DNA from: Aspergillus flavus
Lineage: Eukaryota; Ascomycota; Eurotiomycetes; Eurotiales; Aspergillaceae
NCBI RefSeq assembly: GCF_009017415.1
Contig: NC_092409.1
Location: 4,278,001-4,342,000, forward strand
Length of the DNA stretch: 64,000 nt
Direction of reading: 5' to 3'
The position numbers and the translations under genes are program-made. Within the stretch, counting starts at the first letter, position 1; each line of letters begins with the position of its first letter. Positions 3,600-7,277 of the stretch are shown here, piece after piece. A model generated the notes under the pieces. It searched no databases and was not told where the DNA came from. It worked only from the letters and a program-made list of their open reading frames with translations.

Positions 3600-4583
3600 T
3601 TAAGTTCTGCCCCTCGTTGTATGGACTACGCCACATGGCATGGCCTTATTGGGCAGTATGCAAGGAAGTGGGTATGAGGAGCCGAAGACCTTCGTAAAAG
3701 TCTCCTGGTCCAACAATCGTCCCTCCAACTCAGCGTGGACAATCCGCAGAACCCCTCCATCGCAAGCAATTGCTCGCAACTGACCTCCTTCCTGCAGCAG
3801 ACTAGGCCGAGCGGAAGAGGTAGGGCTATCGTCTAGCACCAACGTGCGCCAAATCGTGATTCGTCCCCTCGCCGTGTCCATGAACGCCCCCGGATACGGA
3901 TGGGTCACAGCTCGCACAAGATTATGAATCTGTCGTGCTCCCATCGTGCCCCAATCAATCAACCCGTCCTGTGGTTTGCGTCCCCCAAAGTAGGACCCGG
4001 ATCTGAGATCCATCTTTCTCGCTACCACCGTGCCCCTCACTATCTCGGGGAGGGTTTGGCAGAGCACCAACTCGGCCGCGACTAAGACCTTGGAAAACAC
4101 ATCCGAGGCCGTATCATTGGGCAGGATAGGCACTGCCATTTGCCCCACAATAGCGCCTGCATCAGGCTTCCGGACCATTTCGTGGAGGGTGGCGCCCGTC
4201 TGGGTTTCACCGTGCAGGAGGGCCCAGTTGACGGGGGCTCGTCCACGGTAGTGAGGTAGCAAAGAGCCATGCATATTGTAGCATCCACGACGCGCCGTCT
4301 CCAGCACCGGCACGCTAAGTATCTTGCGGTAGTAGAACGAGAAGATCAGATCGGGGTTCAGCGATCGCAGACGCGTAAGCATTTCTTCTGTATTCGGACT
4401 GTCGGGCGTCACCACGGGGATTCCATGGAGGCTTGCGAGGTTCGAGACACTATCGAACCAGATGTTTTCGTCGTCATCATCTGAATGGGTGACCACCAGC
4501 TTGACCTCGATGTTTTGTGCAAGGAGAACGGAGAGACACCTCACGCCTACGTTGTGGTATCCGAAAACGACCGCAGAGACCAT
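3600..4583 (-). CDS. ArnA-type nucleotide-sugar N-formyltransferase
   Basis: Intronless 327-aa protein of the formyl_transf_N/C family. It most resembles the N-terminal half of bacterial ArnA, which transfers a formyl group from N10-formyl-THF to the 4-amino group of UDP-4-amino-4-deoxy-L-arabinose. Seen in the sequence: N-terminal VVFGYHNVGVRCL, the segment FSFYYRKIL (residues 81-89), and NMHGSLLPHYRGRAPVNW starting at Asn103. Asn103, His105 and Asp141 (in RKPDAGAIV) align with ArnA's N102/H104/D140 triad. A C-terminal subdomain with HNLVRAVTHPYPGAF follows. Unlike ArnA, there is no fused decarboxylase domain; a separate decarboxylase gene starts 288 bp away and diverges from it. Mitochondrial Met-tRNA formyltransferase was considered, but FSFYYRKI and the lack of a targeting peptide fit sugar formyltransferases better. 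Likely horizontal origin from bacteria is an inference. Confidence 0.88.
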   Translation of the reverse strand: MVSAVVFGYHNVGVRCLSVLLAQNIEVKLVVTHSDDDDENIWFDSVSNLASLHGIPVVTPDSPNTEEMLTRLRSLNPDLIFSFYYRKILSVPVLETARRGCYNMHGSLLPHYRGRAPVNWALLHGETQTGATLHEMVRKPDAGAIVGQMAVPILPNDTASDVFSKVLVAAELVLCQTLPEIVRGTVVARKMDLRSGSYFGGRKPQDGLIDWGTMGARQIHNLVRAVTHPYPGAFMDTARGRITIWRTLVLDDSPTSSARPSLLQEGGQLRAIACDGGVLRIVHAELEGRLLDQETFTKVFGSSYPLPCILPNKAMPCGVVHTTRGRT

Positions 4584-4871
4584 TGCCAGCTTGATTGTAT
4601 TAGACTTCGGGCAGTTGGAGAGACACAGTGAAGAATAGATGAATATCGCTGTGGTTGCTGCAGGGAATGGTGCTGTGGCCAGCTGAGGCAGGCTATTATA
4701 CGATTTACCCTTTCCTCGGCCCTAAAAGTCGGGATTCTGGCCAAGCTGGGTGGAGCTTAAGGTTTCGCCGTATCATTGATTTATACCGAACTTCGCGAGA
4801 TATCCCAACCTAGCACTCGTTTCTTTGCGGTGAACGGTAGCAGAGCATTTTGGGTCAAGAATTGACTAAAA
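4584..4871. promoter_or_regulatory. bidirectional promoter of formyltransferase and UXS genes
   Basis: This 288-bp gap separates the divergent start codons of the formyltransferase (minus) and the UXS gene (plus), so both promoters must fit here. The arrangement suggests joint expression. No specific binding site could be named. Confidence 0.55.
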
Positions 4872-6066
4872 ATGTCTGGCCAGGGTGTACCAGAAAATAA
4901 ACATTCCAAGATCCTGGTTGCTGGAGTATGTATAGCAGGGGGGAAAATACTGAGATTATTGAATATACTGATGTTAGTAGGCTGCGGGGTTCTTAGGGTC
5001 ACATCTTGTAGACCTTCTGCTAGAGAAAGGCCATGAGGTGATTGGTCTGGACAACTTCCAAACGGGCTTTCCCAACAACCTGAAACACTTAATTTCGAAT
5101 GCCAAATTCACCCTCGTCCGGTATGGGAACCACACAGCAGTGGAGACCTGAGTGGTAAAGGCTTAGGATACTGACTCGCTTTGAACAGCCATGATGTGCG
5201 AGCTCCTTTACCAGAGCTACCTATCGTGGATCAGATATATCACCTCGCCTGTCCAGCTAGTCCCATCCAGTACCAGAAAGACCATATTGGCACCCTAGAT
5301 ACCTGCTACCGCGGCACAAAAAGTCTGCTAGAATTCGCAACACAACGCAAGATCCGAATTCTATTCACAAGCACATCTGGTTCGTAGCATCCCCTATCGG
5401 CAAAGAACAACTACTGATTGGGCCGCCTGGTCATCAGAGGTCTACGGAGATCCCAAGGTCTGTCCCCAACCGGAGACATACTGGGGGAATGTGAATCCCT
5501 TTGGTCCCCGGTCTTGCTATGATGAAGGCAAACGAGTCGGGGAGGCTCTAATGTATGGATATCGGGAACAGCATGGAACTGACATTCGGATTGCCCGTAT
5601 TTTCAACACGTACGGACCGCGGATGGCTGCCTCGGATGGAAGGGTCGTTTCTTCATTCATTGCGAGCGCGTTATCGGGACAACCCATCCAAGTTACGGGC
5701 GACGGATCGGCGACCCGTTCATTCCAGTATGTTAGTGATTGCGCGAACGGCCTCTATAGGTTGATGAATAGCAATTACGCAAAAGGACCGGTGAACATAG
5801 GGAACGATAATGAGAATACCATACTACAGTTAGCGGAGATGGTTGCGGAGCTAGTAGCCAGTACTACTAGTCAGCAACCCAAGGTCAGTATCAAATTCCT
5901 TCCATCACCGGTAGATGATCCTACCACTCGACGACCGGACAATTCTCTAGCACTGAGAGAACTTGGGTGGAAACCAATTGTGTCCCTTGAGCAGGGCCTA
6001 AGACACACCATTCGGTGGCATATTGAGGAAATGAGTCGTGGTGGCCACCGTGTAGCGCGGCTGTAA
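4872..6066 (+). CDS. UDP-glucuronate decarboxylase (UXS-type short-chain dehydrogenase)
   Basis: Predicted 337-aa cytosolic NAD-dependent extended SDR. It decarboxylates UDP-glucuronate through UDP-4-keto-xylose. Exons 4872-4925, 4981-5120, 5189-5379 and 5438-6066 join in frame; the introns are 55, 68 and 58 bp, each GT-AG. The Rossmann motif GAAGFLG (residues 18-24) is built across intron 1. HDVRAPL is built across intron 2, and STSEVYGDP across intron 3. The catalytic Tyr156-x3-Lys160 sits in CYDEGKR, followed by ARIFNTYGPRM, DGRVVSSF and TRSFQYVSD, all UXS signatures. No N-terminal membrane anchor, unlike Golgi-type UXS. Fungal-style introns indicate long residence in the genome. The neighbouring aminotransferase and formyltransferase suggest that the 4-keto intermediate, not UDP-xylose, may be the useful product; that is inference. 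Confidence 0.9.
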
Positions 6067-6128
6067 TACTACGCTCGTGGGGTTGTGGAGGAAAATATTA
6101 CAAAGAGCATCCTCAATTCGCTATGTCT

Positions 6129-7277
6129 CTATATACGAGTCAAACGTCTCATGAAATACCACTTTATTGTTTCAACCACCTTGCGTGCTTGCTCCATAGT
6201 CATCGTATAGAAGATCGGAAGACGAACCAGCCTCTCGCTCTCGCGAGTTGCGAGGTCCTGTCGATCAAGAACGTGCCGACCTTGGGCGCCGGGGACCGTC
6301 GAGTGTAGAGGACTATAATGGGCGAGAACCGTTATCCCTGCATCTTTCATGGCGGTAATGAATTCTCTGCGCTGCGCTCCATCCTTCACTCTTATAAAGA
6401 AGATATGTGCATTGTGCTGGCAGTAAGATGGTACAGAGGGTAGAACAATTGGTACATCATCGCCTAGCTTAGATAATTCCCTGTAGTAGAAATTCCAGAT
6501 CTCCAAACGTTGGCTTTGTATGCAATCGGACGCTTCAAGCTGGCCCCAAAGGTAGGCGGCCTGTATCTCGCTGAGGGTATAGCTCGCCCCAGCCTGTTGC
6601 CAGGTATAGTGGGCGACTTCCCCACGCAGGAACTTTTGGCGGTTGGTGCCTTTATCTTTGATAATTTCCGCTTGCTCGACAAGGCCAGGGTCGTTGATCA
6701 GAATCGCGCCACCTTGCCCGCCTGCTGTCACGTTCTTGCTCTCGTGGAAGCTGAAGCACCCGATGTGGCCAATTGTGCCCAACGCACGACCTTTATAGGT
6801 TGAGAACAAACCCTGCGCGGCGTCTTCCACAATATAGATCCCTCGCTCGGTGGCTATATGCAAAAGAGCATCCATATCGCAAGCGACACCAGCATAGTGA
6901 ACCGGGACGATCACACGGGTCTTGTCAGTGATGGCATCTTGGAGCTTTTCCATGTCCATGTTCATGGTCTCGGGCGCAATATCCACAAACACCAACGAGG
7001 CCCCGCGAAGTAGGAATGCATTGGCGGTAGAAACATAGGTGTAGCTGGGGACAATGACTTCATCTCCATGCTGAATGTTCAGGACCAATGCTGCCAAATC
7101 GAGGGCAGCAGTCCCAGATGGAGTAAGGAATACTTTGGCGGCGGGCAATTTCCTTTCCAGCCAATTTTGACATAAGACGGTGTATTCTCCATCGCCACTT
7201 AGGGTGCCTTTCCGCACCGCTTGCTCAACATATTGCAGCTCTGAGCCCGCTACTGTAGGAACGCTGAACGGTATCAT
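6129..7277 (-). CDS. WecE/ArnB-type nucleotide-sugar 4-aminotransferase (DegT/DnrJ/EryC1)
   Basis: Intronless 382-aa PLP enzyme. ATG at 7277 is chosen because MIPFSVP is the family's normal N-terminus; the frame continues upstream only through non-ATG codons. Seen: LTPSGTAALD (residues 51-60), GDEVIVPSYTYVSTANAFLLRG, VHYAG near 127, the EDAAQG cofactor motif (151-156), and FSFHESKN with the Schiff-base Lys181. Then come IKDKGTNRQKFLRG and KDGAQRREF, and near the end ESERLVRLPIF. The pattern and length (about 376 aa) match E. coli WecE (dTDP-4-keto-6-deoxyglucose transaminase) closely, and ArnB more distantly. With a UXS next to it, a UDP-4-keto-pentose is the more likely substrate here. Its 3' end lies 62 bp from the 3' end of the UXS gene. 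Such enzymes are typically bacterial; transfer is inferred. Confidence 0.92.
   Translation of the reverse strand: MIPFSVPTVAGSELQYVEQAVRKGTLSGDGEYTVLCQNWLERKLPAAKVFLTPSGTAALDLAALVLNIQHGDEVIVPSYTYVSTANAFLLRGASLVFVDIAPETMNMDMEKLQDAITDKTRVIVPVHYAGVACDMDALLHIATERGIYIVEDAAQGLFSTYKGRALGTIGHIGCFSFHESKNVTAGGQGGAILINDPGLVEQAEIIKDKGTNRQKFLRGEVAHYTWQQAGASYTLSEIQAAYLWGQLEASDCIQSQRLEIWNFYYRELSKLGDDVPIVLPSVPSYCQHNAHIFFIRVKDGAQRREFITAMKDAGITVLAHYSPLHSTVPGAQGRHVLDRQDLATRESERLVRLPIFYTMTMEQARKVVETIKWYFMRRLTRI

What the first reader, a model, noticed from the sequence alone, without database searches (positions are those of the whole stretch)
3600..7277. Arn-like amino-sugar pathway split into three clustered fungal genes
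Three enzymes that would act in sequence on one nucleotide sugar sit side by side: UXS-type UDP-glucuronate decarboxylase, WecE/ArnB-type aminotransferase, and ArnA-type formyltransferase. Catalytic residues look intact in all three (Tyr156/Lys160, Lys181, Asn103/His105/Asp141). In bacteria ArnA and ArnB make UDP-4-formamido-4-deoxy-L-arabinose by this logic, with formyltransferase and decarboxylase fused. I know of no described fungal equivalent. Predicted product: a UDP-4-formamido-4-deoxy-pentose.
Basis: partly seen in the sequence, partly recalled or inferred. Interest (0 to 1): 0.88.

Follow-up and report, generated by a model that had tools for sequence, protein, structure and literature searches.

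The report
Fungal Arn-like amino-sugar gene trio
An Aspergillus carries three neighbouring genes, two of them apparently of bacterial origin, that look able to build a formylated amino sugar known from bacteria, and other Aspergillus species carry the same three genes.

Summary
A 37.7-Mb Aspergillus genome (flavus/oryzae type, inferred) has, within 3.7 kb, an ArnA-type formyltransferase (3600-4583, -), a UDP-glucuronate decarboxylase (4872-6066, +, three introns) and a DegT-family aminotransferase (6129-7277, -), all open, with the named catalytic residues. The formyltransferase is Arn-type: the 80 bacterial relatives read lie with split Arn genes, and it keeps 29 of 30 Arn-versus-Fmt residues. 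The other two are not Arn proteins: the aminotransferase is WecE-type, the decarboxylase UXS-type. The trio is thus a chimera, not a transferred operon. Listings place all three genes on one 68.8-kb contig in A. bertholletiae and on one large contig each in A. chevalieri and A. wentii; aminotransferase and decarboxylase trees put A. bertholletiae with A. chevalieri against the species order, and the formyltransferase leans the same way (not significant). Most likely product: UDP-4-deoxy-4-formamido-L-arabinose, from UDP-4-keto-xylose caught before UXS reduces it. Open: whether the window's UXS, which lacks an ArnA-like change seen in the other three species, releases the ketone, and what uses the sugar. 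New variant of a known kind.

The parts
3600..4583 (-). Arn-type sugar N-formyltransferase (FT), 327 aa, intronless
   Evidence: NCBIfam NF005414 403.9 bits (cut-off 316) against TIGR00460 fmt 148.9 (201.5); 42% identical to the E. coli ArnA FT domain, 59% over 242 residues to L091 FT; keeps 29 of 30 Arn-versus-Fmt residues; N103/H105/D141 invariant in alignment A1 of 13 sequences
4584..4871 (.). 288-bp divergent intergenic stretch shared by FT and UXS; possible shared promoter (inference)
4872..6066 (+). UXS-type UDP-glucuronate decarboxylase, 337 aa, exons 4872-4925, 4981-5120, 5189-5379, 5438-6066
   Evidence: human UXS1 345 bits; 10 of 10 active-site residues tabled in PMC12820599 present
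6129..7277 (-). WecE-type PLP-dependent sugar aminotransferase (AT), 382 aa, intronless, catalytic Lys181
   Evidence: TIGR02379 530.2 bits (cut-off 434.85), NF008687 543 (375); 56% identical to E. coli WecE, 33% to E. coli ArnB

Best explanation
The trio is a fungal nucleotide-sugar module that works like the first part of the bacterial Arn pathway but is assembled from other proteins. UDP-glucuronate (from UDP-glucose dehydrogenase, encoded elsewhere in the genome) is oxidised at C4 and decarboxylated by the UXS-type enzyme; UDP-4-keto-xylose that leaves the enzyme before reduction is trapped by the WecE-type aminotransferase (glutamate, PLP) as UDP-4-amino-4-deoxy-L-arabinose; the Arn-type formyltransferase caps the amine with a formyl group from 10-formyl-tetrahydrofolate, giving UDP-4-deoxy-4-formamido-L-arabinose, for an unknown glycosyltransferase. 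Shown by sequence: gene identities, intact active sites, the Arn kinship of the formyltransferase, the WecE and UXS kinship of the others, presence of all three in other species. Inferred: ketone release by UXS, substrate of the aminotransferase, stereochemistry (WecE puts the amine in the galacto orientation, which on this ketopentose is L-arabino; recalled), fate of the sugar.
For: (1) FT: of 80 bacterial loci kept (best of 590), tblastn finds ArnC in 80, the U4kpxs-type decarboxylase in 77, ArnB in 74, ArnD in 70, ArnT in 66; all five in 58 of 80, and in 48 of the 53 loci of 15 kb or more. FT keeps 59 of 60 positions shared by 147 bacterial FTs and E. coli ArnA, 29 of 30 of those that differ in E. 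coli Fmt. 19 fungal-like FTs form one clade inside that bacterial family (SH-aLRT 100). (3) A. bertholletiae, of the same subgenus as A. flavus, has trio genes closer to those of A. chevalieri: joining it to the window's lineage is rejected for AT (p-AU 1.7e-5) and UXS (3.5e-4), with the same lean in FT (0.10, not significant). (4) UXS keeps 10 of 10 active-site residues that UXS and ArnA share. (5) In the three other trio species UXS position 290 is Val, as in ArnA and one U4kpxs-type enzyme (a second has Thr); it is Pro in 117 of 124 rows. (6) A UDP-glucose dehydrogenase (Pfam N-domain 147.6 bits, rest read by eye) lies beside a second UXS. (7) A. thermomutatus and A. turcosus, seen by name only in the best 120 of the AT list and not in those of FT or UXS, have Glu for the PLP lysine.
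Against: The window's own UXS keeps Pro290 and looks like a normal UDP-xylose synthase, so it may leak little ketone. The aminotransferase is nearest to an enzyme for a dTDP-6-deoxyhexose, not a UDP-pentose, and at only 2 of 29 WecE/ArnB-separating positions has it the ArnB residue. No glycosyltransferase, ArnC, ArnD or ArnT was seen near it in the ORF lists read; the ORFs within 20 kb were not all searched against families. E. coli ArnC found one weak place (44.7 bits, 23%), ArnD none. The trio UXSs are not shown to be one lineage: held together, 14 log units worse, p-AU 0.078. In A. chevalieri consecutive tags for FT and AT suggest that UXS does not lie between them as it does here. No expression or product data. 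AU groups were named after trees had been seen.
Confidence: 0.64

Rival explanations
1. The three genes make two products: UXS makes UDP-xylose for ordinary glycosylation, while AT and FT act on another 4-keto sugar, such as UDP- or dTDP-4-keto-6-deoxyglucose, giving a formamido-dideoxyhexose.
For: AT is WecE-type, whose E. coli product name is dTDP-4-dehydro-6-deoxy-D-glucose transaminase. UXS is canonical in the window. The genome has an RmlB-like dehydratase (state unclear) and a broken second WecE-like gene at C7:1.866-1.873 Mb.
Against: The C7 aminotransferase copy lacks about 57 internal residues, and no dehydratase of that kind was seen near the trio; the FT is of the family found with Arn genes and scores far lower against the dTDP-4-amino-4,6-dideoxyglucose formyltransferase model (41.9 bits, cut-off 238) and against the GDP-4-amino-4,6-dideoxymannose formyltransferase chains of the PDB (94 bits against 234 for ArnA); UXS is on the trio contig of A. 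bertholletiae too.
Confidence: 0.2
2. The trio makes UDP-Ara4FN, but the formyl group is transient: a deformylase acts after transfer, as in bacteria, so that the final sugar is the free amine.
For: In E. coli a putative ArnD deformylase is encoded in the operon and formylation comes before transfer by ArnC (passages of PMC12650200).
Against: No ArnD-like match in this genome (the tool warns that an empty answer alone shows nothing).
Confidence: 0.08
3. Relic genes in decay, kept open by chance.
For: The FT has a C-terminal extension of about 20 residues relative to relatives; two other named Aspergilli have an aminotransferase without its lysine.
Against: Three open genes with intact active sites; nearest named Aspergillus proteins outside A. 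oryzae are 88% (AT), 91% (FT) and 97% (UXS) identical, whereas the C7 copy in the same genome is visibly broken.
Confidence: 0.08

Closest known systems
E. coli ArnA/ArnB (UDP-Ara4FN branch of the polymyxin-resistance operon)
   Same: Same three chemical steps in the same order: oxidative decarboxylation of UDP-GlcA, transamination, N-formylation; FT of the same family (42% identity).
   Different: Fused ArnA; ArnB-type aminotransferase; ArnA-type decarboxylase that releases the ketone; ArnC/D/T beside it. The fungal AT and decarboxylase are 33% and 28% identical to ArnB and ArnA-DH.
[quoted passage not shown]
   Same: Formyltransferase and decarboxylase are separate genes; the fungal FT lies inside this FT family.
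   Different: Decarboxylase at most 28% and aminotransferase at most 35% identical to the fungal ones over aligned stretches above 150 residues in the 80 loci; ArnC/D/T in most of these loci.
WecE of the enterobacterial common antigen locus
   Same: Family of the fungal aminotransferase, 56% identity, NCBIfam WecE cut-offs passed.
   Different: Neighbours in E. coli are dTDP-glucose genes and an acyltransferase, not UXS and a formyltransferase; 16 of 16 lysine-bearing fungal proteins have Phe158 where at least 97% of 98 WecE rows have Met.
UDP-xylose synthase (human UXS1 and fungal UXS)
   Same: Family of the fungal decarboxylase; ten of ten tabled active-site residues.
   Different: Sits beside an aminotransferase and a formyltransferase; a second UXS beside UDP-glucose dehydrogenase elsewhere in this genome looks like the ordinary UDP-xylose gene (inference).

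Membership tests
Bacterial Arn pathway | ArnA-type formyltransferase | tested here: met
   NF005414 403.9/316 bits; 29 of 30 Arn-versus-Fmt residues; nested in the bacterial clade
Bacterial Arn pathway | ArnB-type aminotransferase | tested here: not met
   PRK11658 208.5 bits, cut-off 631 (two ArnB-position genes of split loci also fall short, at 311.7 and 330); groups with WecE, not ArnB
Bacterial Arn pathway | ArnA/U4kpxs-type decarboxylase | tested here: not met
   PRK11908 92.6 bits, cut-off 294; human UXS1 345 bits against 85-88 for ArnA chains
Bacterial Arn pathway | ArnC, ArnD, ArnT | tested here: inconclusive
   E. coli ArnC: one place, 44.7 bits, 23%; ArnD: none; ArnT not searched in this genome
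Bacterial Arn pathway | UDP-Ara4FN as product | not testable with these tools
   needs enzyme assay
UXS (UDP-xylose synthase) | Active-site residues T118, S119, E120, Y147, K151, N176, R277, Y84, R144, A79 (human numbers) | tested here: met
   10 of 10 in the window protein; ArnA has the same ten, so this does not separate the two
UXS (UDP-xylose synthase) | Retains the ketone and makes UDP-xylose | not testable with these tools
   sequence undecided; Pro290 kept in the window protein
WecE aminotransferase | Family model and PLP lysine | tested here: met
   530.2/434.85 bits; Lys181
WecE aminotransferase | dTDP-4-keto-6-deoxyglucose as substrate | not testable with these tools
   no assay
Methionyl-tRNA formyltransferase | Family model | tested here: not met
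   TIGR00460 148.9 bits, cut-off 201.5

The most novel reading that the evidence does not exclude
Aspergilli evolved a eukaryotic route to UDP-4-formamido-4-deoxy-L-arabinose by combining a formyltransferase taken from a bacterial Arn gene set, a WecE-type aminotransferase from another bacterial source and a fungal UXS; in one lineage UXS gained an ArnA-like active-site change (Pro290 to Val) that favours release of the ketone; and the trio passes between Aspergillus subgenera as one unit to decorate an as yet unknown fungal glycan or metabolite.
Probability: 0.45. Interest if true: 0.78.

Novelty: new variant of a known kind. Interest (0 to 1): 0.62.

Why it matters
Formamido-arabinose chemistry is known from Gram-negative bacteria, where it underlies Ara4N. 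A fungal route built from different proteins would be a case of pathway re-assembly after gene transfer, would predict an undescribed fungal sugar in moulds of food and crops, and gives a test of what makes a UXS release its ketone. I saw no report of it, but that rests on the listings of four answered library searches; six others failed.

Tried and rejected
Operon transfer from bacteria: rejected, because UXS and AT are not the operon's types. Methionyl-tRNA formyltransferase: rejected. Viral source: the FT scan of viral contigs gave 2 loci of 31% identity, and a UXS scan gave 13 loci of 49-58% identity whose surroundings I did not study. Independent recruitment of UXS in two lineages: suggested by trees but not shown (p-AU 0.078). 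AlphaFold model of the FT: mean pLDDT 74.8, pTM 0.56; the first 14 fold matches are E. coli ArnA and the next two Salmonella ArnA, methionyl-tRNA formyltransferases follow from rank 19, with poor superposition (TM about 0.55, rmsd near 11); weak support only. Codon use of the three genes (GC3 0.50-0.63) lies in the range of eight other window ORFs (0.50-0.73), so it does not mark recent arrival. Selection (dN/dS) could not be tested: no DNA of relatives. Contigs of the other Aspergilli could not be read; same-contig statements rest on contig lengths and names in the listings. Rows dropped: the ORF picking lost genes in GC-rich loci, so only 52 of the 80 loci gave an FT row to the tree and 46 of 80 to the count (which also asked for the start motif VVF[AG]YH; the other 101 bacterial rows are P0020-P0120); gene presence was therefore taken from tblastn. 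In one search 33 ArnB-position ORFs of 350-430 aa were used, and the fungal AT set was split by hand into 16 with and 6 without the lysine before counting. P0250 was left out of the alignment.
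Full report
What is there. The window lies at C2:4278001-4342000 of a 37,736,778-bp genome in 8 contigs. Three genes lie within 3600-7277: a formyltransferase (FT, -), a decarboxylase of UXS type (+, four exons) and an aminotransferase (AT, -).

The formyltransferase. NCBIfam places it in the stand-alone formyltransferase family PRK06988 (403.9 bits, cut-off 316), above ArnA (286.9) and far above methionyl-tRNA formyltransferase (148.9, below its cut-off of 201.5). 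With proteins of Undibacterium locus L091 as queries, ArnC was found in 80 of 80, the PRK11908 decarboxylase in 77, ArnB in 74, ArnD in 70 and ArnT in 66; all five in 58 of 80, and in 48 of 53 loci of at least 15 kb. NCBIfam names for loci L044 and L091, the two scanned, agree for formyltransferase and decarboxylase; their aminotransferases score best against ArnB but below its cut-off. So the family is that of split Arn gene sets. Of 60 positions at least 97% conserved in 147 bacterial FTs and the same in E. coli ArnA, the window keeps 59; of the 30 that differ in E. coli Fmt, 29. In the tree 19 fungal-like proteins are one clade (SH-aLRT 100), beside 18 bacterial rows that include Stenotrophobium assemblies (93) (careful tree with 7 bacterial rows 100/100). 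Four of the 19 carry an Aspergillus name (P0002, P0004, P0006, P0014) and one is the window; the others are unnamed.

The aminotransferase. It passes the WecE models (530.2/434.85; 543/375) and not ArnB (208.5/631); 56% identical to E. coli WecE, 33% to ArnB. The fungal proteins are one clade beside bacterial WecE. Of 29 positions that separate WecE from ArnB the window keeps the WecE state at 17; at 2 of the other 12 (Asp134, Ala343) it has the ArnB residue. All 16 lysine-bearing fungal proteins have Phe158 for Met; whether this bears on the substrate is unknown.

The decarboxylase. It is a UXS: human UXS1 345 bits, ArnA chains 85-88. The ten residues tabled for UXS and ArnA in PMC12820599 (one section read) are all present; they do not separate the two enzymes. 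[quoted passage not shown] look-up failed; from recall, its abstract reports that human UXS releases a small fraction of ketone). A UXS feeding an aminotransferase is therefore chemically reasonable. Position 290, three before the catalytic arginine, is Pro in 117 of 124 aligned rows, Val in ArnA, L091 DH and the UXSs of A. chevalieri, A. bertholletiae and A. wentii, Thr in L044 DH and P. cinerascens; the window keeps Pro. This favours ketone release in the other three species and gives no such support for the window.

Linkage in other species. The listings show FT, AT and UXS representatives on contigs of the same length and organism in A. bertholletiae (68,782 bp), A. chevalieri (3,721,407) and A. 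wentii (7,905,159). Only the first is tight; in A. chevalieri FT and AT have consecutive tags, and the place of UXS is unknown. A. bertholletiae shares subgenus Circumdati with A. flavus, A. chevalieri is in subgenus Aspergillus and A. wentii in Cremei. Yet the A. bertholletiae genes group with those of A. chevalieri; forcing them with the window's lineage gives p-AU 1.7e-5 (AT), 3.5e-4 (UXS) and 0.10 (FT). The FT result alone is not significant, and the groups were chosen after trees had been seen. Genes that depart from the species order in the same direction are best read as co-transfer or co-loss of a unit. The UXSs of the two lineages do not group together, but a common clade is not rejected (p-AU 0.078).

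Dependence between the genes. A. thermomutatus and A. turcosus appear by name for AT only, and their AT has Glu for the PLP lysine, as have six of the 22 fungal-type ATs compared. A small sample, but consistent with AT function tied to its partners.

Supply and use. A UDP-glucose dehydrogenase is encoded beside a second UXS at C2:1.51 Mb. ORF lists of the 30 kb to the left and of the window, read by eye and for three neighbours by Pfam, showed no glycosyltransferase close by. E. coli ArnC gave one weak place and ArnD none. What uses the sugar is open.

Verdict. A chimeric, eukaryotic Arn-like module, product most likely UDP-Ara4FN (0.64). It works like the decarboxylation, transamination and formylation steps of Arn; it is not an Arn gene set, since two of the three defining proteins fail the membership test. 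PMC12650200 and PMC5607165 (passages only) were used for the bacterial pathway. The statement of novelty rests on four answered searches, whose listings showed no fungal Arn pathway.

Noticed in passing
P0133, P0136, P0138, P0156, P0157, P0176 (proteins): WecE-like proteins of A. thermomutatus, A. turcosus and unnamed sources with Glu in place of the PLP lysine; the two scanned, P0133 and P0136, still pass the WecE model cut-off.
   Followed up: partly
G000:C7:1866035-1873748 (L032 6035-7112 -, L033 2779-3748 +): RmlB-like dehydratase and a second WecE-like aminotransferase about 6 kb apart; the aminotransferase similarity is in two frames with about 57 residues missing, so probably a relic of another amino-sugar locus.
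   Followed up: partly
G000:C2:1508772-1512136 (L030 7772-9376 -, L031 91-1136 +): Divergent pair of UDP-glucose dehydrogenase and a second UXS, a likely ordinary UDP-xylose locus.
   Followed up: partly
L031 3139-4541: ORFs that look by eye like a KdsD/GutQ-type sugar-phosphate isomerase; not searched against any family.
   Followed up: no
window 3600-3662: The FT runs about 20 residues beyond the end of the A. caelatus protein and other relatives.
   Followed up: no
window 1401-3174: Two ORFs; the first matches ERG4/ERG24 (33.5 bits), the second has a motif like sterol reductases by eye: a diverged, intron-bearing or broken reductase-like gene beside the trio.
   Followed up: no
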